Of a stretch of DNA of 64,000 nucleotides, positions 33,199 to 45,143 are shown in pieces (position 1 is the stretch's first letter; each line of letters begins with the position of its first letter). The notes beneath the pieces are model-generated. The model had not been told where the DNA came from. It did no database searches and was given only the letters and a program-made list of their open reading frames with translations. The stretch spans positions 1 through 64,000 of the forward strand of contig NZ_JACJRJ010000014.1 of the NCBI RefSeq assembly GCF_014697195.1. The letters are read 5' to 3'. Origin of the DNA: Cylindrospermum sp. FACHB-282 (GTDB lineage Bacteria; Cyanobacteriota; Cyanobacteriia; Cyanobacteriales; Nostocaceae). Position numbers and translations under genes: made by a program.

Positions 33199-33399
33199 CT
33201 ATGTAAAGATGACATTTCCGTGGACAGGTCCGCTGATAATATTGTTGCCAATATTAGCAGCGCTAGCAATATTGTTGCCAACAGGTTTGACGTAGCGATA
33301 TTTAGGCTTACGGTAGCTGCCACATCCCCCAGCTAAAAGCTGCTGTTGTTCCGTGGTTAAGTCCACAAGCAAATTAGGGTTAATGTTTTGATTTGACAA
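33199..33399 (-). CDS. Double-glycine leader peptide precursor, Cys-first Tyr/Lys core
   Basis: 66 residues. The leader MSNQNINPNLLVDLTTEQQQ-LLAGG (25 residues) matches the leaders of the other small genes here and ends in the GG that C39 peptidases cut. The predicted core begins with Cys: CGSYRKPKYRYVKPVG, followed by NNIASAANIGNNIISG and PVHGNVIFT. It is basic and aromatic at the start and Asn/Ile/Gly-rich after. A single Cys means no internal disulfide. It is the gene farthest from the transporter on this side, on the same strand. Confidence 0.75.
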   Translation of the reverse strand: MSNQNINPNLLVDLTTEQQQLLAGGCGSYRKPKYRYVKPVGNNIASAANIGNNIISGPVHGNVIFT

Positions 33400-33681
33400 A
33401 ATTATTCACCTCTATTAATACATAAATTTCTCAGGACTGCACTTTTATTTATAAATCTATTTTCTCTAAATTAAATGTTGCTTTGGTTATATATCTTTGT
33501 GGTTTTTGGGATTTTAATTTTATCTTTGAACAGAATATATGAGAATCCTAAAACTAGTTCAAAACCAGATTAAGTTTGAGCTAGGGATACAGATTTTGTC
33601 TCACCATATCCCTATTAATTGCCCAATTTAAACTCTGTCGATTTAAGACAAAAGCCCGTTAAAACTGGCCTTGTCATCTTT

Positions 33682-33807
33682 TTACCACCAACCACCACCA
33701 TGACCACCGCCAGGCCAACCGTTACGTCCTCCAGTTAAAAGCTCCTGTTGCTCTGTGGAAAGCTCCACAAGCAAATCAGAGGTGATCGTTTGATTTGAAA
33801 TCATCAT
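33682..33807 (-). CDS. Double-glycine leader peptide precursor, short Gly/Trp core
   Basis: A 41-residue gene (ATG at 33807 or 33804). The leader MMISNQTITSDLLVELSTEQ-QELLTGG is nearly identical in plan to its neighbours. Cleavage after GG would release RNGWPGGGHGGGWW, only 14 residues and composed of Gly, Trp, His, Arg, Asn and Pro. An AGG-type ribosome site (AGTGAGGTAC) precedes the start. A Gly/His/Trp composition of this kind suggests metal binding or a modified mini-peptide, which is speculation. Confidence 0.75.
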   Translation of the reverse strand: MMISNQTITSDLLVELSTEQQELLTGGRNGWPGGGHGGGWW

Positions 33808-33985
33808 GTACCTCACTTGCTTATATAACCTGAAGAGAATCTAGCAAAATACACGCTTAAACTAGCTCAAGATTAATCAAGTTTTGAGCTAGTTATAGGA
33901 GTATTTTCTTGCTAATTGCAAAGTTGAAACCCTGACAATACTCACTTCCTAATCTTTGTCAACTTGCCCTTAATCATTAGGAGAA

Positions 33986-34153
33986 TTAGTGGCACATTTT
34001 GGAGCAGCATTTACTTTTCTTTTTTTTCATACAGCTATCGTAACAGTCATCACCACTTCCTCCACTTTGGCCACCAGATATAAATTGCTGTTGATCTGTG
34101 GATAGCTCCACGAACAAATCAGGCTGGAGAGTTTGAAAAGATTTAACAGACAT
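33986..34153 (-). CDS. Double-glycine leader peptide precursor, Cys-rich Lys core
   Basis: 55 residues from ATG 34153, with TTGAGGTAA upstream. The leader MSVKSFQTLQPDLFVELSTD-QQQFISGG fits the family. The 27-residue core QSGGSGDDCYDSCMKKKK-SKCCSKMCH has five cysteines in a CxxxC...CCxxxC pattern around a Lys cluster. This suggests disulfides or metal coordination and a cationic bacteriocin. It is the most bacteriocin-like core of the locus. It lies 505 bp downstream of the precursor gene at 34659. Confidence 0.75.
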   Translation of the reverse strand: MSVKSFQTLQPDLFVELSTDQQQFISGGQSGGSGDDCYDSCMKKKKSKCCSKMCH

Positions 34154-34658
34154 ATAGAATTACCTCAATTCGTGATAGATCGAGGTGATACAAATAAATG
34201 TTGGTTGAAATAACATGAATATGATGTACCACCTGTTATTTATTATTAATAACCAAATGTTCAATAAATGAACTATTCTAAGGTGATAAATAAATCGGCT
34301 AAATATCTAACTTTTGGTTCATGGCTAATACTATCCAAAGTTGAATGAAAATTTTAAAAGCAAGGTTTGATATTGCTTTTATTGTTTACGATGGGCAGAA
34401 GTAAGTAAGTAAGTAAGCGAAAAGAAATCAAACCATGTTAAGTAAAGTAAAAAATATTGAAATTACCTCGTAACAAGCGGCTCTGTGCCCTACTTTGTTC
34501 GCGTAGCATTTCGTATCGCCAACGCCTAGCTAGGGTCGACCACAGGAGATAGAGAGGGCTAAGAGCCGCTCACTACCAACCTTGAATTATTTACACCAAC
34601 CTACTTAGAATTAATTACGCTTTTATCATCATTTATACTTTTTTTTACAAGGTACAAA
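34154..34658. other. Spacer with a palindromic repeat and a GTAA microsatellite
   Basis: 505 bp without a gene. Inverted arms AGCGGCTCT (34476-34484) and AGAGCCGCT (34562-34570) enclose an interspersed-repeat-like interior (TTCGCGTAGCATTTCGTATC). A short GTAA tandem run (AAGTAAGTAAGTAAGTAAGC) lies near 34400. Confidence 0.7.
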
Positions 34659-34955
34659 CTATGAAAATAAACTTATGAGGAAATTGCCCAGAACATTCTT
34701 CCGTCTATTAGCGCTGGGACTGGAAGTAGGTAAATTCAACTTTATGGAATAACTGATGGTAGTTTGTGACAAATTATAGGTACTTTTTTGTGAAGAGACA
34801 TCACCACCTCCCAGATTTAATGTATTTTCTGCCGTAGTTTGAATATTAGTTTGCTGATAGAAAAGGCTAGCCTCACCTGCAACTAGGATTTCTTGTTCTT
34901 CCTCAGACAAATCCCTGAATAATTCAGGATTGTTGGATGTGGGATTTTCAGCCAT
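34659..34955 (-). CDS. Leader peptide precursor with altered cleavage site (AGE)
   Basis: 98 residues. The leader-like N-terminus MAENPTSNNPELFRDLSEEE-QEILVAGE aligns with the locus leaders, but the second glycine of the GG site is replaced: V-A-G-E. The remainder is Ser/Thr/Asn-rich (EASLFYQQTNIQTTAENTL, LNLGGGDVSSQKSTYNLS) and has a hydrophobic end, GNFLISLFS. It lies just 29 bp downstream of the C39 transporter gene on the same strand. It may be a substrate cleaved elsewhere, a non-cleaved partner, or an inactive copy. Confidence 0.65.
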   Translation of the reverse strand: MAENPTSNNPELFRDLSEEEQEILVAGEASLFYQQTNIQTTAENTLNLGGGDVSSQKSTYNLSQTTISYSIKLNLPTSSPSANRRKNVLGNFLISLFS

Positions 34956-34984
34956 AGAATTACGTTCTGAGATGAGAAAAATTA

Positions 34985-37153
34985 TTACAATGCCAAAAAC
35001 TTTAAGTGTTCTCCTGGTTGAGAGAGAAAAGTCTCCATAGTGCCTTGTAGTTTAATCTGACCTTTATCTATGAGTACGATCCAATCAGCGCGATTGACTA
35101 CGCTGGGACGATGAGTGATCAAAATTGTAGTTTTGCCTTTTCGTTCTTCCAAGAGGCGATCTAGTACTTGAGCTTCACTGACTGGATCGAGTCCAGCGGT
35201 GGCTTCGTCTAAAATTAGTACAGGTGGGTCGGTGAGGATGCCTCTGGCGATCGCTAATCGTTGTCTTTGTCCCCCAGAGAGATTTGCCCCAAATTCCCCT
35301 AAAACAGTTTGATACTTACTAGGCAATTGACTGATAAATTCATCCGCATCAGCGATTTCGCAAGCTTTGACAACTTGCTCAAAAGAGATATAAGGCGTTC
35401 CTAAGCGGAAGTTTTCCAAAATCGAACGACTCCAGAAATGAGGTTCTTGGGGTACATAAACCACCTGTTGTCGGAGACAATCGAGAGAAAGGTCTTGGAT
35501 GTTATAAAAGCCAATGCGGATATTGCCAGAGTTTGGCGGATATAAGCCGGCTATTACTTTGGCCAAAGTACTTTTACCACAGCCTGATTTACCAATGAAA
35601 GCAATAACTTTCCCACCGGGGAGCTTGAGGGAAAAATCCTCTAATAAATCAACTCTACCAGGGTGGTGAAATTGGAGATGGGAACAACGAATATCTGCAT
35701 CTCCAGAGATTTGTGCCGCTGGCCTTTGACTTCCTCCCACCACTTCTGGTGTAGCATCAATAACTTCTAGTAGGCGAGAAATTGCCGTTTGCGAGCGAAA
35801 GTATTCATCGACGAAGCCAACTAACAAGTTAATTAAAGCCAGAACATTTACCTGTAGGGCATTAAAAGCCAGCATTTGACCGATGCTTAATTGCCCCCGA
35901 ATCACCAGCATACTCCCTAGCCCAAGTAAAATGACACTACCAACGGTAGAGAAGAGTCTAGAAACAGTACCATTAATAATGCCGATTTGGATGGTGCTAA
36001 AAGCTAGATTGGCAACGCGTCCAAAGCGACTTTGGAATTCTTCCCAGAATTGGGGAGCGGCATTTGTGGTTTTGATTACCTGTGCACCTTTAAAAGTTTC
36101 CACCAACACACCTTGATTTTCTGCTCCCAACACCAAAAGTTGGCGGGTTTTTTGTTGGAGAATGGGCAAGAAAGGCAAGGTGGATAAAGTCATTAAGGCA
36201 GCGACGAAGAGGACTGCTAGCGTTAGTTGCCAGCTGTAAAATAGCATCAGCCCGAAAGAAATCATCGCAATAAAAAACTGGCTGGGTAACAGAATTACAA
36301 TCTGTGATACCAATTGGTTGATTTCATTGATATCTCGCAGTCGGCTAGTAATTTCACCACTGCGACGAGCTTCGTAGTAAGCCAAGGGTAACTGGAGAAG
36401 TTTGCGTCCAAAGTCTAAGACTAACCCTAATTGCAGTCGCTGACCAAAGTGAGCAATCATCGTTGCTTGTACTGCTTGCAGGCTACTACTAAATAAGCTC
36501 ATCACCACAACCGCTGTCACCACAACGGTGAGTAGCTGGGTATCTCCCCGTACTAGGACATCATCTGTAAGCAGTTGAATGAGGATGGGGGTACCGAGAC
36601 CGAGTAGACCCAGGACAGTATTGATCATCAAAACCTGAGTGAGTAGCCCACGGTAAGGCAAGATGCGCTTCAAAAAGCGTCCTAAGCCACCTTTTGATTC
36701 TTCTTGGGGCTGTTCAAAAAAGCGGGTAGGATCTGGCTCTAGTAAGAGCATTACCCCATTCCAAGCTGCTGTTAATTCGTCTCGGCTAACATAGCGGATG
36801 CCTACAGCAGGGTCGGCAATGACGTACTTTTTGCCTCGTTGGTCGTAGAGTACGACCCAATGGTAGCCATGCCAATGAATAATTGCTGGTAACTGGATTT
36901 CTCTGATGCGGTCTGCGATCGCTGGTGAAGCTTTAACTGCCCTGGCATTAAACCCTAGAGTTTCAGAGCCACGTTTTAAACCCAGCAAAGTTGTTCCTAG
37001 CTGTCCAGTACCTACAGCATCGCGGCTTTTAGTCATGCTTAAGAAGCGTCCGTAATGCTTGCAAATGGAGACTAGACAAGCTGCTCCACAGTCTTCCTCA
37101 CTTAACTGTAAAACACACTGATAATTTTTATTGGGTTTGAGTAGATTAAACAT
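34985..37153 (-). CDS. Peptidase C39-containing ABC transporter (leader-cleaving exporter)
   Basis: About 722 residues. ATG 37153 is chosen because AAGGG lies five bases upstream; a GTG at 37159 is the alternative. The N-terminal C39 cysteine protease has catalytic Cys in LSEEDCGAACLVSICKHYG (about 22) and His in IIHWHGYHWVVLYD (about 98). Six membrane helices span about 165-440. The ATPase domain has Walker A GKSGCGKSTL near 517, signature LSGGQRQRLAIARG near 625 and Walker B PVLILDEATAG. Such proteins cut after the GG of leader peptides and export the core. It is central to the locus: the HlyD-type adaptor is upstream and precursor genes lie on both sides. Confidence 0.95.
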   Translation of the reverse strand: MFNLLKPNKNYQCVLQLSEEDCGAACLVSICKHYGRFLSMTKSRDAVGTGQLGTTLLGLKRGSETLGFNARAVKASPAIADRIREIQLPAIIHWHGYHWVVLYDQRGKKYVIADPAVGIRYVSRDELTAAWNGVMLLLEPDPTRFFEQPQEESKGGLGRFLKRILPYRGLLTQVLMINTVLGLLGLGTPILIQLLTDDVLVRGDTQLLTVVVTAVVVMSLFSSSLQAVQATMIAHFGQRLQLGLVLDFGRKLLQLPLAYYEARRSGEITSRLRDINEINQLVSQIVILLPSQFFIAMISFGLMLFYSWQLTLAVLFVAALMTLSTLPFLPILQQKTRQLLVLGAENQGVLVETFKGAQVIKTTNAAPQFWEEFQSRFGRVANLAFSTIQIGIINGTVSRLFSTVGSVILLGLGSMLVIRGQLSIGQMLAFNALQVNVLALINLLVGFVDEYFRSQTAISRLLEVIDATPEVVGGSQRPAAQISGDADIRCSHLQFHHPGRVDLLEDFSLKLPGGKVIAFIGKSGCGKSTLAKVIAGLYPPNSGNIRIGFYNIQDLSLDCLRQQVVYVPQEPHFWSRSILENFRLGTPYISFEQVVKACEIADADEFISQLPSKYQTVLGEFGANLSGGQRQRLAIARGILTDPPVLILDEATAGLDPVSEAQVLDRLLEERKGKTTILITHRPSVVNRADWIVLIDKGQIKLQGTMETFLSQPGEHLKFLAL

Positions 37154-37278
37154 AGTCACCCTTCTGGATCAAAACTTGGTAAACAAGATCAGGGAATTTA
37201 GAATTTTAGATTTAGTGATTCTGCTTAACCCAAAATCCTCAAAGAGCAATTGATGATTGTTAAAACCCAATTGTGGGA

Positions 37279-38769
37279 TTACACATCTGTGATGAGTCTT
37301 CCTTTTCTGAGAATGAACTGAAGCACGGTTTCCCGACGGGAAATAATATCAGCGCGACCTTCCATTCCCGATTTGAGATCACACAAGTGCTCCCCTCTAC
37401 CCACATATAGAGTTTCTGGCTCAATTATTACTTCATAGGCAGTAGTTGGACTGTTTTTGTTCACTACTAGGGCATCTGGTGCCACAGTTTTCACAATTGC
37501 TTTGAGAGTTCCGTAGTCTGGGTAAGGACAGGCAGAAACCTGCATCTGGACTTTTTGACCCGGTTTCACCTTGTCAATATCTTTAGCCTGGACATAAGCC
37601 TTAATCTGTAAAGGAGCATCGAGGGGGGCAATTTGGGCGATCGCTTCACTTGGTTGCACCACCTGTCCTGGGTTGCGGAGATTGAGTTGCAGTAGTACAC
37701 CTGTAATCGGCGCTCGAATCACACTTTTACTTAAGTCAGTTCCTACTTGTTGTAGTTCTTGACGAGTGCGAACGAGTTGTTTTTGTAGTTCTAAACGCTG
37801 CTGGAGTAGAGACTCTCGTTCTCTTTTTAAACTGGCTAAAGTACCTTCACCCCTTGCTTGTTCTTGCCTAATCCGTTCAGATGCCATAGTGACGGCAGCA
37901 TTATTAGGATTGATCGCCGTTTTAGCCTTTTCTAGATTCATTTGGGCTATTTGAAGGGCTTGTTCTTTATCCTCCAAGAGGTTTTTAGCCGTAGCTTTGG
38001 CTTGTTCTAGCCTAGCTTGAGCAGACTTAAAGGCTTGGTCTTTTTCCTCAAATAGATTGAGAGGAACTGCTCCCGATTCGACTATCGGCTGCAATCGCTC
38101 TCGTTGCACTTGGGCTAACTTCAAGGCGGCTTCTGCTTCTTCTACAGTTGCTGTTAATACTTTTTCCCGCCGCAATCGCTCCAGTTGCACTTTGGCTAAT
38201 GCCAAGGCAGCTTCTGCTTGTGTCATTTCCGCAGTAGCTTTAATTTGCTGATCGCCATAGTTGCGTTCAGTACCACCTAGCTCCGCTTGTGCCGCCGAGA
38301 TTGTGCGGTTAATTAACTCAGTCTGGGACACAATCTGAGTATTGATTTGAACCAGTTGAGTACCGATTTGACCCAGTTGTAATTGACCCTGCTGAATAGT
38401 GTTTTGTAGTTGGCTCTTTTGAGTTTGCAGGCGGGAATCATCAACATAAGCGATCGCATCCCCCTGATTCACCACCTGATTTTCTCGGACATCAATCCTT
38501 TCAACAGTTCCAGCCGTGGCGGACTGAATAACCCGCAGTTCTCCCACAGGTCGGATAGTGGCAGGGACTTTGACTGTGACATTGTAATGGAGAACAGATG
38601 TGAGACTCATCCCTGCCACAAAGATAGTCAGCAACACTCCCCCTCCGATGCTAGTCCATTTATTGATATGAGGGAGAAACTCGTTAACTTCAATTAAATG
38701 GAGTTGCTCAGGAATCGGTTCATTCAATTGATCCCTAACATAGTTTTCCTCATGGCGTAAGGAGTTCAC
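37279..38769 (-). CDS. HlyD-family membrane fusion/adaptor protein
   Basis: 496 residues. One N-terminal membrane anchor (ISIGGGVLL-type segment near residue 40: GGGVLLTIFVAGMSLTSVLH). A lipoyl-like beta half follows (SATAGTVERIDVRENQVVNQ, GDAIAYVDDSRL). The coiled-coil hairpin of about 200 residues has heptad-like repeats (AEAALALAKVQLERLRREK, AEAALKLAQVQRERLQPI), then VIRAPITGVLLQLNLRNPGQ completes the split lipoyl domain. It bridges an inner-membrane exporter to an outer-membrane channel. It is immediately upstream of the C39 ABC transporter (125-bp gap), forming a type I-like secretion pair. No TolC-like gene is in the window. Confidence 0.93.
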   Translation of the reverse strand: MNSLRHEENYVRDQLNEPIPEQLHLIEVNEFLPHINKWTSIGGGVLLTIFVAGMSLTSVLHYNVTVKVPATIRPVGELRVIQSATAGTVERIDVRENQVVNQGDAIAYVDDSRLQTQKSQLQNTIQQGQLQLGQIGTQLVQINTQIVSQTELINRTISAAQAELGGTERNYGDQQIKATAEMTQAEAALALAKVQLERLRREKVLTATVEEAEAALKLAQVQRERLQPIVESGAVPLNLFEEKDQAFKSAQARLEQAKATAKNLLEDKEQALQIAQMNLEKAKTAINPNNAAVTMASERIRQEQARGEGTLASLKRERESLLQQRLELQKQLVRTRQELQQVGTDLSKSVIRAPITGVLLQLNLRNPGQVVQPSEAIAQIAPLDAPLQIKAYVQAKDIDKVKPGQKVQMQVSACPYPDYGTLKAIVKTVAPDALVVNKNSPTTAYEVIIEPETLYVGRGEHLCDLKSGMEGRADIISRRETVLQFILRKGRLITDV

Positions 38770-39453
38770 CGTATTGCACCTTTTATTTTTAATTGAGACA
38801 TCAACGGAAATTAGAGTTATTTAAATGTCGCATTTACGAAGATGGATGGCTTCAGATAAGTCTCCATAACTTGATTGGAAATCGCCTGCTACCGAAAAAC
38901 AACCCTCTAAGGTTATAACTTTAATTAAATCCCTAACGCCATTGTCAAAAGCAACACGAGAGTCAATATCAGGGTTTTTCCGCAATCAAATAGGAATCCT
39001 ATAGTTGGTCATGGTATATGATTAATAAAGGGGGAGAGAAAGTAAAACGCTAGGCGCGATAATAACCTTTCTCAAGTCTCGAACGTGGCTAAAACGTAGA
39101 GAAACAAAATAGAGGAGATAGCTCAAACTCTCTCAAAGTCCTCACTTACGTTGAGCGAGTCATTAAAATCTCCTCTCCCCCCTTCTTACTTGGTAAAGTT
39201 TCATATTCCCGAAATTTCTTAGCGGCAGTAGTTTTATTTGGTGCATTTAGTCCAAATATCGCGTTTAAAAACGGCATAGCCACTAACTTGGATATCTTGG
39301 CTAGGGTCAGAAGGAAGAAAGAACAAGTATCATGCAAAAATCTATTCATTATTTACTTTTGACTATTTAAAAGCCCCCACGGAATAGTCCGTACCTATCT
39401 AGGAAGCACTAGCGGTATTGCAGCTAATTTTTCCGGCTCATCTAGGGGACTAG
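38770..39453. other. Spacer with a copy of the precursor 3'-flank repeat
   Basis: 684 bp. The reverse frame at 39146-39349 is not supported. The part near 39300-39400 (GGTCAGAAGGAAGAAAGAA, then ATTCATTATT) resembles the flank found downstream of the tandem precursor genes (for example 41960-42010). It is probably leftover from duplication. Confidence 0.6.
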
Positions 39454-39732
39454 TTAAAGAATAGGTGGGGGAGGTAAGGCTGTAATGTTCCCAGGAATAG
39501 TTCCACCCAGTCCCAAAAGATATTGTGCCGCAGTATTCCTGGACCTATCCCAGCCAACAGAGAAGGTAGTGCTGCCTAAGGGAGTGGAGGCGGTTGACTC
39601 CAGGGAAAATACAACTCTTTCAGCAAAATTAGTGTTACTCAGACCAAAGTCAGCACCACCAGAAACAAGCTCCTGTTCCTGAACAGATAACTTGACGAGC
39701 AACTCGGATGCAATGATTTGATCTGACATCAT
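39454..39732 (-). CDS. Secreted-peptide precursor, Ala/Gly/Pro family (member 1)
   Basis: 92 residues (start 39732 or 39729). The leader MMSDQIIASELLVKLSVQEQ-ELVSGG is followed by a diverged family core: ADFGLSNTNFAERVVF, a unique middle (LESTASTPLGSTTFSVGWD), then NTAAQYLLGLGGTIPGNI and the end ALPPPPIL. It belongs to the seven-member family filling 39.4-44.1 kb. The core lacks Cys. The family resembles proteins annotated elsewhere as cyanobacterial 'CTB family bacteriocin', from memory. Confidence 0.75.
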   Translation of the reverse strand: MMSDQIIASELLVKLSVQEQELVSGGADFGLSNTNFAERVVFSLESTASTPLGSTTFSVGWDRSRNTAAQYLLGLGGTIPGNITALPPPPIL

Positions 39733-39840
39733 GATAAGCCTCTCTAAACCTACATCTTTTATGTAGGGGAAGGATCTAGAAAAAAAGAATAAGTCTGATG
39801 AAAAAATTTATTCATTCTGGACTTTTTGATCACACCACTC

Positions 39841-39935
39841 ACAAGTTGCTGCTTAGATAGGCAAGGCACTTTGGTTTGAAATCTGAATAACCTGACAAAC
39901 AACTTGAATGCAATGATTTGATTTGAGATGATGAG
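39841..39935 (-). pseudogene. Relic of a precursor gene (leader fragment without start codon)
   Basis: The minus strand reads SNQIIAFKLFVRLF, matching the family leader SNQIIxSxLFVxLS. Preceding bases are ATCATC where the working copies have ATG or ATGATG. The match stops after the leader. Immediately downstream is sequence like the 3' flank of intact members (TTTTTGATCACACCACTCAC, GCAAGGCACTTTGG), so the body of the gene was lost by an internal deletion. Confidence 0.65.
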
Positions 39936-39984
39936 TAACCTTACTTAACCTAACCTATAGGTTTTAGCTGGGGAAAAAGAAAAT

Positions 39985-40278
39985 TTATTTTAGTGTTCCA
40001 ATACTTAAGAAAGCTGGTGGAGTGATCACGGAAGTGTTTGCAGCGGTCTTAGTGCCTTTTCGTCCGCCTAGAGCATCGCTGATACTACCAGCAGGTCCAG
40101 AAAAGATTTGTCCCTGTGTATTCGTAGCCTTCCCCATATCAGTTGTTCCCGTGAGGGTACCGCCCTGTATAGGTAATGGGCCACTACCAAGTACAAGATC
40201 CTGACCGCCATTGATAAACTGTTGTTGCTCATCAGATAACGTGATAAACAACTGGGATGCAATGATTTGATTTGACAT
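39985..40278 (-). CDS. Secreted-peptide precursor (member 2, divergent core)
   Basis: 97 residues from ATG 40278. The leader MSNQIIASQLFITLSDEQQQ-FINGG has a perfect GG site. The core QDLVLGSGPLPIQGGTLTGT continues TTDMGKATNTQGQIFSGPAG and ends VITPPAFLSIGTLK. It keeps the SGPAGS-like stretch of its paralogues but lacks the TAAQDFLGLGG block, so it is the most divergent member. An upstream in-frame ATG at 40287 would add MLN. It contains no Cys and is on the same strand as the transporter. Confidence 0.7.
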   Translation of the reverse strand: MSNQIIASQLFITLSDEQQQFINGGQDLVLGSGPLPIQGGTLTGTTDMGKATNTQGQIFSGPAGSISDALGGRKGTKTAANTSVITPPAFLSIGTLK

Positions 40279-40503
40279 ATTCAACAAAAGTGTTCTGAAA
40301 TTGGAGAAGACAACTACCGCCTAATCGGCAGAAACCTTTAGTACCCACATTGCTCATTTCACTCTTGACCTTTTTTTGAATTGAATTGACGCTCTCAGAA
40401 CCACCACTTTCCTATCTTTGCTTGCAGATGGGAAGCGTTCTCATATAACAGCTGATTTTTGTCTGATCACCTGAAGTAATGTTTAAGAAACAGTGGTGGT
40501 TAT

Positions 40504-40815
40504 TTACCCTGGGTTTGCGGCCACTGGGGCCACATCTGCGCCAAGCATGGGTGCAGGAGCCAAAGCTCCAATGTCTGTAGGAATAGCTGCACCCGATCCT
40601 AACAAAGCTTGTGCAGAGTTACTGATGTAATTCTTCTGGAGTCTGGTGTTGGAAGTATTACCCAAAGGGCCAGAAGTCGTTGTCCCCTGTTGATTGACAA
40701 CGTCTTGAGTAAAGTTACTGTTACTCTGCTCAGAGCTGGCGCTACCAACTAGAAGCTCCTGTTGTTCCTCACATAAGTCTACAAACAACTCAACAGCCAT
40801 GATTAGATGTGACAT
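40504..40815 (-). CDS. Secreted-peptide precursor-like gene with lost GG site (member 3)
   Basis: 103 residues from ATG 40815. The leader-like start MSHLIMAVELFVDLCEEQQE-LLVGS aligns with the family but the cleavage site reads G-S instead of G-G, and a Cys replaces the usual Ser/Asp (LCEEQQ). The rest keeps family blocks: ASSEQSNSNFTQDV, QQGTTTSGPLGN, SAQALLGSGAAIPTDIGAL and an Ala/Pro end. It may be poorly processed or decaying. Confidence 0.65.
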   Translation of the reverse strand: MSHLIMAVELFVDLCEEQQELLVGSASSEQSNSNFTQDVVNQQGTTTSGPLGNTSNTRLQKNYISNSAQALLGSGAAIPTDIGALAPAPMLGADVAPVAANPG

Positions 40816-40907
40816 AGTTCTTAGCCCTACTAATGCAATCTTGAACAATAAGGATTCCAGACACTAAGAAAGCAGATGAACTTTTCCCTAACCCATTCAC
40901 CCTTGGG

Positions 40908-41046
40908 AAAACCTGTCCAAAATTGGTGGTTCCAACGCTAGTTGGAGGCTTGGAGAATCTCGTTTTCACGCAAAATATTGGGTGATGCCGCCCTGCGCAC
41001 CGAGTTTACCCATCTAACGAATAGATTTTGGCTCAGGAACCGCAGG
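40908..41046. repeat. Interspersed repeat family A (copy 3)
   Basis: CTTGGGAAAACCTGTCCAAA, ATTGGTGGTTCCAACG, AATCTCGTTTTCACGCAAAA and TTGGGTGATGCCGCC match the copies at 8.2-8.6 kb (reverse) and 24.1-24.3 kb. The inverted ends have decayed here. The copy lies between two precursor genes. Confidence 0.85.
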
Positions 41047-41159
41047 AGAAGAAACCTTGAGCGCCCATTGTGTCATGGGCGACAACGACAACAAAGTTAA
41101 CCTGGCAATTCCTGAACTAAACCTGTCCAGCAGTTGGGTGTGATATCTGATTTTTTTAG

Positions 41160-41438
41160 TTACCCAAGGACGGGTGTGGGGGGTAAAGCTCCTATGCCTT
41201 CAGGAATTTCTCCACCCAAGCCTAAGAAATCTTGGGCTGCGGTATTGGTAAGATTACTAGTTCCTGCGGAGTTAGCGAAGCTGCCACCAGGGCCGGAAGA
41301 AGTTGTCCCCCGTAAGGCACTAATTCTGTTGGCGAAATTGCTGTTACTCAGTTCAAAGTCAGCGCCACCAGCTAGAAACTGCTGTTGTTCATCAGATAAA
41401 GGGACAAACAACTTAGATGTAATGATTTGATTTGACAT
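41160..41438 (-). CDS. Secreted-peptide precursor, Ala/Gly/Pro family (member 4)
   Basis: 92 residues from ATG 41438. The leader MSNQIITSKLFVPLSDEQQQ-FLAGG has a canonical GG. The core ADFELSNSNFANRISALRGT continues through TSSGPGGSFANSAG, NLTNTAAQDFLGLGGEIPEG and the end IGALPPTPVLG. This is close to a family consensus and lacks the long Ala/Pro tail of members 5-7. A GTGAGCCTC-type flank precedes it. The core is hydrophobic, Gly/Ala/Asn-rich, without Cys, consistent with a class II-like secreted peptide. Confidence 0.78.
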   Translation of the reverse strand: MSNQIITSKLFVPLSDEQQQFLAGGADFELSNSNFANRISALRGTTSSGPGGSFANSAGTSNLTNTAAQDFLGLGGEIPEGIGALPPTPVLG

Positions 41439-42091
41439 GATTGTGAGCCTCACTTAGATATTTCTCAAACAAAGGATTTAGGACTTCACAGATAGAAAAC
41501 AGCAAAGATGGGGTATGTTTTGTGTGATTAAAAGTGCGAAGAAAGTGCGTTAGGGAATGCACACTACGGGTAGGATGGCAGACTCATCAAACAACCATCT
41601 CTTCTCTTCGAGACGCTAGACCTTGGGGCAGCATAGCCTCTGGCGATAGGAGACAGCCTCAAGCTAGGAACGAGGGTAAATTTGTACCGTATGTAAGTCC
41701 TAGGATTCCAGAAACTGGCTTGCGGATAATTTTCTCTGAGGCATTTACCCAGATGATTGGGTTGTGCCAAAGGGTAGATAACAAGAAGCCTCTGGAATCC
41801 ACAGCTATTACTACCATCTCAAGAGAATAAATTTTGATCATCCTTCTTGTTTAGTGCCATAACAACAAGGGAGTAAACCCTGTGCTGTCTTGATAAAATC
41901 AGCAGGATGACTTCTGCAATGGTTGATTCTTCAGGATAGAAATGGCAGATTTTGCCTAAGGGCAGAAGGAAGAAAGTATTGATTCATTCTTCATTCTTGA
42001 TTGTTTGATCACCCCAGTCACTATTGCTTACCGTCAGGTACAAAGCACTCTGGAGTGACATCTGCCGAATTTTTGTTACTGATGGGAATGC
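41439..42091. other. Spacer; right part is the first copy of the repeated precursor flank
   Basis: 653 bp without a supportable gene. The part from about 41850 onward (TAGTGCCATAACAACAAGGG through GTCAGGTACAAAGCACTCTG) is repeated with a 788-bp period at 42.64 kb and again near 43.43 kb. Confidence 0.65.
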
Positions 42092-42451
42092 TTAGACTGT
42101 GGGGACGGCGGCGATCGCACCGGGGACTACGGCGATCGCACCAGGGATGGGGGCTGGAGCTGGGGCGACATTTCCATTCAGAACAGGTGCAGCACCCAAG
42201 GCGCCGACGTCCGCAGGAATGGTTCCACCCAAGCCCAAGAAATCTTGCGCTGCGGTATTGGTCGCATTATTAATTGCGCTAGAGTTGCCTGTGCTGCCAC
42301 CGGGGCCGGAAGCAGTTGTTCCCTGTAATGTTGCCAGTCTGTTGGCGAAATTGCTGTTACTTAATTCAAAGTCGGCGCCACCAGCTAAAACCTGTTGTTG
42401 TTCATCAGATAAGGTGACAAACAACTCAGATTGGATAATTTGATTTGACAT
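42092..42451 (-). CDS. Secreted-peptide precursor, Ala/Gly/Pro family (member 5)
   Basis: 119 residues. Leader MSNQIIQSELFVTLSDEQQQ-VLAGG, then the core ADFELSNSNFANRLATLQGT, TASGPGGSTGNSSAINNATN and TAAQDFLGLGGTIPADVGAL. The extended Ala/Pro/Val tail includes NVAPAPAPIPGAIAVVPG. It is almost identical to member 6 except for a few substitutions in the leader, core and tail. Ribosome site GAAGC lies upstream. There is no Cys. It lies in the tandem array and each member probably has its own promoter because the 5' flank is conserved. Confidence 0.8.
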   Translation of the reverse strand: MSNQIIQSELFVTLSDEQQQVLAGGADFELSNSNFANRLATLQGTTASGPGGSTGNSSAINNATNTAAQDFLGLGGTIPADVGALGAAPVLNGNVAPAPAPIPGAIAVVPGAIAAVPTV

Positions 42452-42879
42452 GATTCTTTGCTTCAGTTAGGTATTTGTAAAAAAATGGATTCTAGAGACT
42501 GACTTGCTGCCTCCAGTTTGCCCTAACCCCTAAAGCTAGAGGATGGGGTGGTGAGAAAAAGTCCAAGACAGGTCATCTCTAGAATCCATAGATGCCGCTA
42601 TCTCAGGAGAAGAAACTTTGAGTGCCCTTCTTATTTGGTGCCACAACAATAAGGGAGTAAACCCCCTGCTGTCTTGGAAAACTAAACAGGGTGACCTCTG
42701 CAATGGTTAGCTATTCGGGATAAAAATTGCAGATTTGGTTTGGGGGAAGAAAGAAGGAATAACGTATTGATTCATTCTTCATGCTTAATTGTTTGATCCC
42801 CCCACTCACTATTGCTTACCGTCAGGTGCAAAGCACTCTGGAGTGACATCTGCCAAATTTTTGTTACTGATGGGAATGG

Positions 42880-43239
42880 TTAGACTGTGGGGATGGCGGC
42901 GAGGGCACCGGGGACGGCGGCGATCGCACCAGGGATGGGGGCTGGAGCTGGGGCGACATTTCCATTCAGAACAGGTGCAGCACCCAAGGCGCCGACGTCC
43001 GCAGGAATGGTTCCACCCAAGCCCAAGAAATCTTGCGCTGCGGTATTGGTCGCATTATTAATTGCGCTAGAGTTGCCTGTGCTGCCACCGGGGCCGGAAG
43101 CAGTTGATCCCTGCAATGTTACCTGTCTGTTGGCGAAATTACTGTTACTTAGTTCAAAGTCGGCGCCACCAGCTAAAACCTGTTGTTGTTCATTAGATAA
43201 GGTGACAAACAACTCAGATTGGATAATTTGATTTGACAT
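42880..43239 (-). CDS. Secreted-peptide precursor, Ala/Gly/Pro family (member 6)
   Basis: 119 residues, a recent duplicate of member 5. The leader is MSNQIIQSELFVTLSNEQQQ-VLAGG. The core differs at RQVTLQGSTASGPGG (versus RLATLQGTTASGPGG), and the tail ends PGALAAIPTV. A TGAGGCAAAG ribosome site lies five to ten bases upstream of ATG 43239. Differences are concentrated at a few codons, suggesting early divergence after duplication. Confidence 0.8.
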   Translation of the reverse strand: MSNQIIQSELFVTLSNEQQQVLAGGADFELSNSNFANRQVTLQGSTASGPGGSTGNSSAINNATNTAAQDFLGLGGTIPADVGALGAAPVLNGNVAPAPAPIPGAIAAVPGALAAIPTV

Positions 43240-43697
43240 GATTCTTTGCCTCAGTTAGGTATTTCTAAAAGAATGCATTCTAGAGACTGACTTGCTGCCT
43301 CCAGTTTGCCCTAACCCCTAAAGCTAGAGGATGGGGTGGTGAGAAAAAGTCCAAGACAGGTCATCTCTAGAATCCATAGATGCCGCTACCTCAGGAGCAG
43401 AAACTTTGAGTGTCCTTCTTGTTTAGTGCCACAACAACAAGGGAGTAAACCCCCTGCTGTCTTGGAAAACTAAGCAGGGTGACCTCTGCAATGGTTAGCT
43501 ATTCGGGATAAAAATTGCAGATTTGGTTTGGGGGAAGAAAGAAAGAAGAACTTACCAGTACAATGCCATATTGATTTATTCTTCATTCTTGAATGTTTAA
43601 TAACCCCCACTCACTATTCCCTACCGTCAGGTGCGAAGCTCTCTGATGTGACTGCTGATTTTTGGACTTACCGATGGGAATGCTGAGAGAATAGCGA

Positions 43698-44066
43698 CTA
43701 CGGCGCCACGCCAGGGGTGACAACAATGCCTGCATCGGGGCCAGCGGCACCAGCAGCTTCTGGGGCTGGTGCGACTTCTGGGGCTGCTCCATTCAGGACA
43801 GGTGCAGCACCCAGTCCACCAATGCCTAGAGGAATGGTTCCACCTAAGCCTAAGAAATCTTGCGCTGCGGTATTGGTCGCATTATTAATTGCGCTAGAGT
43901 TGCCTGTGCTGCCACCGGGGCCGGAAGCAGTTGTTCCCTGTAATGTTGCCAGTCTGTTGGCGAAATTGCTGTTACTTAATTCAAAGTCGGCGCCACCAGT
44001 TAGAAGCTCTTGTTGTTCATCAGATAATACAACAAACAACTTGGATACAATCATTTGATTTGACAT
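43698..44066 (-). CDS. Secreted-peptide precursor, Ala/Gly/Pro family (member 7)
   Basis: 122 residues from ATG 44066 (an in-frame start at 44081 is less likely because the family begins MSNQ). Leader MSNQMIVSKLFVVLSDEQQE-LLTGG. The middle of the core is identical to member 5 (LATLQGTTASGPGGSTGN). The end differs: GTIPLGIGGLGAAPVLNG, then APEVAPAPEAAGAAG and DAGIVVTPGVAP. It is the last (5'-most) gene of the array. The mosaic pattern suggests exchange between copies. Confidence 0.8.
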   Translation of the reverse strand: MSNQMIVSKLFVVLSDEQQELLTGGADFELSNSNFANRLATLQGTTASGPGGSTGNSSAINNATNTAAQDFLGLGGTIPLGIGGLGAAPVLNGAAPEVAPAPEAAGAAGPDAGIVVTPGVAP

Positions 44067-44534: not shown

Positions 44535-45143
44535 TCAGCAATCCCACTGGAATTCAGCTAAAATTAATAAGCAGAGAACCATCAGACCACCAGTGCTAAG
44601 AAACTGCCAAGGGCCAATATAAGGCAAGATAAAAATTCCTATTAGGTGAACTATGCCTGTGAAGATAAAGGCACGCGATCGCACTGCTAAACCTGTACAC
44701 AAGTAGCCTAGTGTACTCAACCCTAACCACAATGGACAGAGGTGTATTAATATTTCCCCCCAGCCGATAAAAATACTCAAATCCGTTAATATCACCCCAA
44801 ATAGCATTAGCAGTACCCAGCAATAGAGTAACCAGCTAACTCGTTTGGCTTTTACCCAATGACTAGTCCAAATTACCATGAGGGTGATACCAATAAAACT
44901 GAGAATTGACCATAAAGTAGCTTGTAAATTCCAGCCAATAGGGAGAAATTGGGCAGTCATAAACATCGGTATAATTAGTAAACTCCAAAATATACAAGCT
45001 TGGTCAATACGAGTATAAAATGTTGAATAAAGCCGAATTTTCCCAATTTGCCAGTTAACATACCATAATCCTTCCAATTTTTCAATTTCTATGGTTAACT
45101 GCTTACGACGCAAGGGCGGTATTGAATAATTAAAAAAGCTCAT
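44535..45143 (-). CDS. Integral membrane protein of unknown function
   Basis: 202 residues. A ~45-residue N-terminal cytoplasmic part (SIPPLRRKQLTIEIEKLEGL) precedes about six hydrophobic segments, such as ACIFWSLLIIPMFMTAQFL, WSILSFIGITLMVIWTSHW, WLLYCWVLLMLFGVILTDL and FIFTGIVHLIGIFILPYIG. No catalytic or transport motif was recognised. It is on the same strand as the neighbouring kinase-type gene but separated from it by a terminator hairpin, so it is probably transcribed alone. It does not resemble known bacteriocin immunity proteins clearly, though its position beside the peptide array leaves that open. Confidence 0.65.
   Translation of the reverse strand: MSFFNYSIPPLRRKQLTIEIEKLEGLWYVNWQIGKIRLYSTFYTRIDQACIFWSLLIIPMFMTAQFLPIGWNLQATLWSILSFIGITLMVIWTSHWVKAKRVSWLLYCWVLLMLFGVILTDLSIFIGWGEILIHLCPLWLGLSTLGYLCTGLAVRSRAFIFTGIVHLIGIFILPYIGPWQFLSTGGLMVLCLLILAEFQWDC

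What the first reader, a model, noticed from the sequence alone, without database searches (positions are those of the whole stretch)
33199..44066. Large secreted-peptide locus: one C39 exporter serving many precursors with four unrelated core types
Eleven small genes share the leader plan (S)NQxIxxxLFVxLSxEQQxLxxGG (nine with intact GG) around one C39-ABC transporter and one HlyD adaptor. Predicted cores include a 14-residue Gly/Trp peptide, a 27-residue five-Cys Lys peptide, a Cys-first Tyr/Lys peptide and a seven-member Ala/Gly/Pro family. No modification enzyme (LanM, YcaO, radical SAM) lies in the window. This suggests a combinatorial export system with a common leader and swapped cores.
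Basis: partly seen in the sequence, partly recalled or inferred. Interest (0 to 1): 0.85.

Follow-up and report, generated by a model that had tools for sequence, protein, structure and literature searches.

The report
Cyanobacterial peptide-export island with repeated hairpin
A filamentous cyanobacterium carries a known type of island in which one protein exporter serves eleven small secreted peptides; its layout is fixed rather than randomly mixed, and an undescribed folded nucleic-acid element repeatedly follows the peptide genes.

Summary
Eleven small genes at 33199-44066 share one double-glycine leader (nine GG, one AG, one GS) around one C39-ABC exporter and one HlyD; there is also a twelfth, decayed copy. 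It belongs to a known kind: the short-C39 cyanobacterial 'bacteriocin' clusters of Wang et al. 2011, with seven precursors above the cut-off of NCBIfam's 'CTB family bacteriocin'. The genus is most likely Cylindrospermum. 'Swapped cores' is not supported. In 57 related loci core type follows position: CTB cores only upstream of hlyD (84 of 86; 0 of 171 downstream), a second conserved, unnamed family directly after the exporter, and fast-changing short peptides beyond it. The leader alone predicts the slot in 96%. The best function guess is extracellular matrix or surface peptides, as for the PteB/EbfG system (exporter 55% identical, cores unrelated), but a bacteriocin role is not excluded. New: a ~155-nt structured element (strong covariation, no Rfam match), intact at 39027-39184. 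Elsewhere it sits within 80 nt after precursor stop codons (39 of 41 copies), including precursors far from any exporter. It was found only in Nostocaceae with this exporter. Which strand it acts on, and whether as RNA or DNA, is unresolved.

The parts
43698..44066 (-). CTB-type precursor, GG leader
   Evidence: NF038167 81.6 bits, cut-off 32
42880..43239 (-). CTB-type precursor, GG leader; tandem duplicate of 42092 (788-nt repeat)
   Evidence: ORF; repeat; NF038167 83.7 bits
42092..42451 (-). CTB-type precursor, GG leader; first 52 core codons 154/156 nt identical to 43698
   Evidence: NF038167 84.2 bits; segment identities
41160..41438 (-). CTB-type precursor, GG leader
   Evidence: NF038167 82.7 bits
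40504..40815 (-). CTB-type precursor, leader ends GS
   Evidence: NF038167 57.5 bits
39985..40278 (-). CTB-type precursor, diverged core, GG leader
   Evidence: NF038167 34.6 bits
39759..39930 (-). decayed twelfth precursor: no start codon, no GG site
   Evidence: translation; leader HMM 18.2 bits
39454..39729 (-). CTB-type precursor, GG leader
   Evidence: NF038167 60.5 bits
39027..39184 (-). structured element (intact copy), ~155 nt, 5 helices, 258 nt upstream of hlyD
   Evidence: covariation; model hits 156.9/151.0 bits; no Rfam match
37279..38769 (-). HlyD membrane-fusion protein
   Evidence: PF13437 6.5e-22
34985..37159 (-). short-type C39 peptidase-ABC exporter, 724 aa
   Evidence: PF03412, PF00664, PF00005; 55% identical to PteB
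34659..34955 (-). 'Q' precursor, 29 nt after the exporter, leader ends AG; unnamed conserved core family
   Evidence: A3 alignment; no Pfam/NCBIfam family; core-only search
33986..34153 (-). tail precursor, 27-aa core with 5 Cys, Lys-rich
   Evidence: ORF and leader
33773..33917 (-). degenerate copy of the structured element, 69 nt after the 33986 stop
   Evidence: 33.1 bits, E 0.006 genome-wide; an overlapping + strand reading (33833-34030) scores 35.7
33682..33807 (-). tail precursor, 14-aa Gly/Trp core
   Evidence: ORF and leader
33505..33614 (-). possible degenerate copy of the structured element, 68 nt after the 33682 stop
   Evidence: 25 bits, E 0.34 genome-wide: weak, noted for its position
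33199..33399 (-). tail precursor, 41-aa Cys-first Tyr/Lys core
   Evidence: ORF and leader; positional counterpart in L138

Best explanation
This is a conserved Nostocaceae island for making and exporting small double-glycine proteins. The C39 domain of the exporter cuts each precursor after GG (or AG/GS), and the ABC transporter with HlyD, and presumably a TolC-like channel encoded elsewhere, releases the cores. It has three position-fixed modules: an amplified CTB array upstream; an hlyD-C39-Q gene set whose last gene encodes a second conserved core; and a tail of fast-evolving short peptides. Precursor genes duplicate locally, and in the tail often together with a ~155-nt structured 3' element. 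The most likely role of the conserved cores is extracellular: surface or matrix peptides assembling through long beta-hairpins, rather than classical bacteriocins. Shown here: anatomy, conservation, position rule, covariation, position of the element. Inferred: cleavage, export, function, and the element's role (most likely forming or protecting the 3' end of precursor mRNAs).
For: Exporter and HlyD domains. Same leader beside orthologous exporters in 73 of 80 related loci. Position rule 84/86 vs 0/171, Fisher 2e-66; leader-only slot prediction 96%. Q cores found by a core-only model in 28 of 390 genomes; 10 of the 11 hits in genomes that also appear in the exporter list lie next to a C39 exporter. 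CTB cores under purifying selection between sister species (dN/dS about 0.22-0.48 in five of six pairs). No recognisable immunity gene. Hairpin predictions: Q pLDDT 82 with the hairpin largely above 90, CTB 68. Precedent: the S. elongatus C39 exporter PteB secretes EbfG1-4, needed for biofilm; EbfG1-3 form amyloid (PMC4997328, PMC9981879); PteB is 55% identical to this exporter. Element: 17 pairs with two-sided changes, 69 such cells vs 23.8 shuffled, 0/500; 39 of 41 non-hlyD copies within 80 nt after a precursor stop.
Against: EbfG cores show no similarity to CTB or Q, so the matrix role rests on the exporter and on analogy. Predicted hairpins match nothing significantly; the best shapes are pore-toxin stems, which would fit an antagonistic role. 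The tail peptides evolve fast, as bacteriocins may. The element shows no G-U over A-C excess, so an RNA-level role is not established.
Confidence: 0.55

Rival explanations
1. A true bacteriocin (allelopathic peptide) cluster: the exported cores inhibit related cyanobacteria, and the diverse tail gives target range.
For: The family is named bacteriocin; fast-evolving Cys-rich, basic and Gly/Trp-rich cores; beta-pore-like shapes at non-significant scores; CTB genes induced by phosphate starvation in Nodularia, read there as allelopathy (PMC9846622).
Against: No immunity gene seen; CTB and Q cores are conserved across genera with purifying selection; no activity has been reported for the family in the papers read.
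Confidence: 0.28
2. Developmental or signalling peptides of filamentous cyanobacteria (for example hormogonium, akinete or heterocyst communication).
For: C39 exporters can drive development: HetC peptidase and ATPase activities are needed for heterocysts (PMC10986499). The intact cluster is found in heterocyst-forming Nostocaceae.
Against: HetC is the long type and has no known substrate. No receptor or regulator is conserved in the island.
Confidence: 0.15
3. The structured element is only a transcription terminator or chance palindrome carried along by tandem duplication.
For: Position just after stop codons; duplicates with tail genes; no G-U excess.
Against: Compensatory changes far above shuffled and slid controls; branched shape with invariant internal positions; no clear U-tract; 46 loci keep a full copy before hlyD, usually hundreds of nt from any precursor.
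Confidence: 0.4
4. Integron-like cassettes, the element acting as an attC-type recombination site.
For: Array of small genes, each trailed by a structured palindrome; pairing constraint looks strand-symmetric.
Against: attC core sites RYYYAAC/GTTRRRY in 1 of 25 copies each; integron integrase over cut-off in 2 of 22 carrier genomes and no hit in this one.
Confidence: 0.03

Closest known systems
Cyanobacterial bacteriocin gene clusters, group III (Wang, Fewer and Sivonen 2011, PMC3140520)
   Same: Short C39-ABC exporter, HlyD, no lanthionine synthetase, no second ABC transporter, many double-glycine precursors with diverse cores.
   Different: The text read of that survey does not describe a position rule, the Q family as a constant partner, or a structured element.
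NCBIfam NF038167 'CTB family bacteriocin'
   Same: Seven of eleven precursors score above its cut-off.
   Different: The Q and tail precursors match only weakly, mostly through the leader.
PteB / EbfG1-4 biofilm system of Synechococcus elongatus (PMC4997328, PMC9981879)
   Same: Homologous exporter (55% identity); GG/GA leaders; several small secreted proteins.
   Different: Different leader and unrelated cores; no element copy found at that locus with R2 (L121).
Nodularia spumigena CTB genes (PMC9846622)
   Same: CTB genes in Nostocaceae, transcribed and induced by phosphate starvation.
   Different: Expression data only; function not tested.

Membership tests
Wang group III cyanobacterial bacteriocin cluster | short-type C39-ABC exporter without N-terminal CAP_ED domain | tested here: met
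   C39 at residues 13-144 of 724 aa, then ABC membrane and ATPase domains
Wang group III cyanobacterial bacteriocin cluster | HlyD present; no LanM, SurA or peptidase-less ABC transporter in the cluster | tested here: met
Wang group III cyanobacterial bacteriocin cluster | multiple double-glycine precursors | tested here: met
   eleven
Wang group III cyanobacterial bacteriocin cluster | exporter falls in clade III of the C39 tree | tested here: inconclusive
   no tree built; 55% identical to PteB, the short-type exporter of S. elongatus, which has one group III cluster in Wang Table 1
CTB family bacteriocin (NF038167) | score of at least 32 bits | tested here: met
   six precursors 34.6-84.2 bits and 42880 at 83.7 bits
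CTB family bacteriocin (NF038167) | score of at least 32 bits, for 33199, 33682, 33986 and 34659 | tested here: not met
   21.6-25.3 bits
bacteriocin in the functional sense | antagonistic activity | not testable with these tools
   needs purified peptide and target strains
bacteriocin in the functional sense | cognate immunity gene | tested here: not met
   none recognised by Pfam nearby; unknown families not excluded
PteB/EbfG biofilm system | EbfG-type core | tested here: not met
   no significant match
lanthipeptide cluster | LanM/LanC at the locus | tested here: not met
   LanC-like genes only on other contigs
known RNA family for the element | Rfam 15 match at gathering score | tested here: not met
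integron attC | RYYYAAC/GTTRRRY core sites and an integron integrase | tested here: not met

The most novel reading that the evidence does not exclude
The ~155-nt element is a functional structured 3' module of double-glycine precursor genes in Nostocaceae: a new RNA family that stabilises, terminates or regulates these mRNAs, or a DNA hairpin that helps precursor cassettes duplicate and diversify. It would make precursor plus structured tail an evolving cassette feeding one exporter.
Probability: 0.5. Interest if true: 0.7.

Novelty: new variant of a known kind. Interest (0 to 1): 0.55.

Why it matters
Genome annotation calls these islands bacteriocin clusters, yet the core classes are conserved and position-fixed, and the nearest tested relative builds biofilm. 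The island offers two fixed secreted-protein families plus a fast-evolving tail behind one exporter, so substrate range and function can be tested in tractable Nostocaceae. The structured element is a concrete new object: it can be given a covariance model, knocked out and mapped, and it marks precursor genes even far from any exporter.

Tried and rejected
(1) Homology between CTB and Q cores: hhalign probability 1%. (2) EbfG homology, suggested by ANIG-like motifs in the 33199 core: not supported. (3) Fold matches: none significant for either model; hydrophobic alternation of the strands not above shuffles. (4) The 41-43 kb intergenic repeats as a regulatory element: clearly conserved only in the sister species, so a duplication trace. 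(5) Small ORFs at 38821 and 39146: not conserved as proteins; the conserved DNA between p39454 and hlyD turned out to be the structured element. (6) Dispersed repeat (MITE/REP): rejected for this genome, where all copies lie in this island. (7) Integron: rejected. (8) Deciding strand by G-U versus A-C counts: inconclusive.

Full report
WHAT IS THERE. On the minus strand of 33199-44066 lie eleven short ORFs with one leader plan, MSNQIIxSxLFVxLSxEQQQxLxGG, a 724-aa C39-ABC exporter (34985-37159) and an HlyD protein (37279-38769). Nine leaders end GG, 34659 ends AG and 40504 ends GS. A leader model trained only on relatives scores all eleven at 34-50 bits; the next unrelated ORF of the 64-kb window scores 3.6. 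Shuffled windows reach at most 11.8 bits with a window-trained model. A decayed twelfth copy lies at 39759-39930. Two further leader-bearing genes sit far away on contigs C81 and C25, so leader-bearing precursors also exist away from the exporter.

WHOSE GENOME. The locus is 96% identical (exporter) to that of G001. The other same-genus genome, G002, has the contig length of Cylindrospermum sp. NIES-4074 (L043), so the genus is most likely Cylindrospermum, Nostocaceae.

WHAT KIND. Seven precursors pass the NCBIfam 'CTB family bacteriocin' cut-off. The layout matches group III of Wang et al. 2011: short C39-ABC, HlyD, no LanM, SurA or second ABC, several double-glycine precursors; up to sixteen precursor copies per cluster and very variable cores were already reported there (PMC3140520). 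So the headline of the finding is known.

FIXED LAYOUT, NOT FREE SWAPPING. Eighty related loci were fetched from public genomes; 73 carry the leader. In the 57 Nostocaceae loci, 84 of 86 precursors upstream of hlyD have CTB cores and none of 171 downstream do (Fisher 2e-66). Directly after the exporter comes one conserved gene, 34659 in the window, with the core pattern FFxQTxIxTxAxNxLxLxxGDxSSQxTKYxLSQxT. Searched without its leader, this 'Q' family appears in 28 of 390 class genomes; of the 11 hits in genomes that also appear in the exporter list, 10 lie next to a C39 exporter. Pfam and NCBIfam have no name for it. Beyond Q lies a tail of short, fast-changing peptides: acidic with basic C-termini, PDIxVxG, Cys-rich, and Gly/aromatic-rich, the last often at the end. 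The leader alone predicts the slot in 96% of cases with the locus left out. Core and leader therefore travel together.

CORES UNDER DIFFERENT REGIMES. Between this genome and G001 the exporter has dN/dS near 0.06, five of six CTB core pairs 0.22-0.48, Q 0.26, while the 33199 core keeps only 10 of 35 aligned residues. Between paralogues 42092 and 43698 the first 52 core codons are 154/156 nt identical while leader (61/75), upstream (27/60) and tail (31/42) differ: the core has been homogenised. That is the reverse of a common leader with swapped cores.

STRUCTURE AND FUNCTION. AlphaFold2 gives both CTB (pLDDT 68) and Q (82; most hairpin residues above 90) as two strands of about 20 residues. 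They share no sequence profile and have no significant PDB match; pore-toxin stems and other beta-rich shapes lead the lists at non-significant scores. The nearest tested system is PteB/EbfG of S. elongatus: the exporter is 55% identical, EbfG1-4 are exported by the C39 protein and needed for biofilm, and EbfG1-3 form amyloid (PMC4997328, PMC9981879); but EbfG cores are unrelated. I therefore favour surface or matrix peptides over bacteriocins, with moderate confidence; a related genus induces CTB genes under phosphate starvation (PMC9846622).

A STRUCTURED ELEMENT. DNA between the last CTB gene and hlyD was conserved at 72-89% in many loci although no ORF there is. In a MAFFT alignment of 38 copies a five-helix structure is paired in 89% of cells; 17 pairs show changes on both sides, in 69 cells versus 23.8 after shuffling (0/500), and sliding the partners destroys it. 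Single-strand folding has z = -3.8. Rfam has no match. A covariance model finds one intact copy in this genome. Among 80 relatives it occurs in 22 genomes, all within the 26 whose exporter is at least 80% identical; in 390 class genomes it is seen only in Nostocaceae. A second model finds 46 copies before hlyD and 41 more reliable copies. Of those 41, 39 start within 80 nt after a precursor stop codon; random placement of the 38 tail copies gives 4.8 on average and 19 at most, 37 observed. Two cases separate precursor from exporter: in G002 a copy follows an orphan precursor 1.36 Mb from the exporter, and in G036 copies follow precursors of a tail array about 0.6 Mb from it. So outside the hlyD position the element goes with the precursor gene. 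About a quarter of tail precursors have a detectable copy. In the window two degenerate copies sit 69 and 68 nt after the 33986 and 33682 stops; alone they would not be significant.

LIMITS. G-U and A-C combinations are about equally frequent at paired positions, so I cannot say which strand is used or whether the constraint is on RNA or DNA. Duplication with the precursor explains part of the positional rule. The second model's alignment was fitted to the structure; the first was not. Core classes were defined partly by hand, and the CTB and Q models were seeded from their own positions, although neither hits cores of the other side. Export, cleavage and function were not tested. Thirty of the larger window ORFs were scanned with Pfam, not all.

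Noticed in passing
window 39027-39184 (-); also 33773-33917 and 33505-33614: Undescribed structured element with strong covariation, trailing double-glycine precursor genes across Nostocaceae; no Rfam family.
   Followed up: yes
window 34659-34955 (-); L040-L114 downstream of the exporter: Unnamed conserved core family ('Q') immediately after the C39 exporter from Nostoc to Acaryochloris, predicted as a long beta-hairpin.
   Followed up: yes
G000:C81:62247-62321, G000:C25:29786-29860 (L139, L140): Leader-bearing precursor genes far from any exporter; the C81 core resembles one in Anabaena sp. FACHB-1237 (L085).
   Followed up: partly
G036:C1 near 5,318,500-5,322,100 (L150): A six-gene tail array separated by about 0.6 Mb from its exporter, beside the frr, pyrH and alpha/beta-hydrolase genes that flank the island here.
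   Followed up: partly
window 41800-43600: 788-nt tandem duplication units carrying CTB genes with long similar intergenic stretches, clearly conserved only in the sister species.
   Followed up: partly
G000:C40:31000-57500: A second region with three LanC-like (LanM-sized) proteins and another C39 exporter, with weak double-glycine-like precursors.
   Followed up: no
window 44535-45143 (-): 202-aa hydrophobic protein without a Pfam family flanking the CTB array; found in the flanks of 9 of 82 related loci.
   Followed up: no
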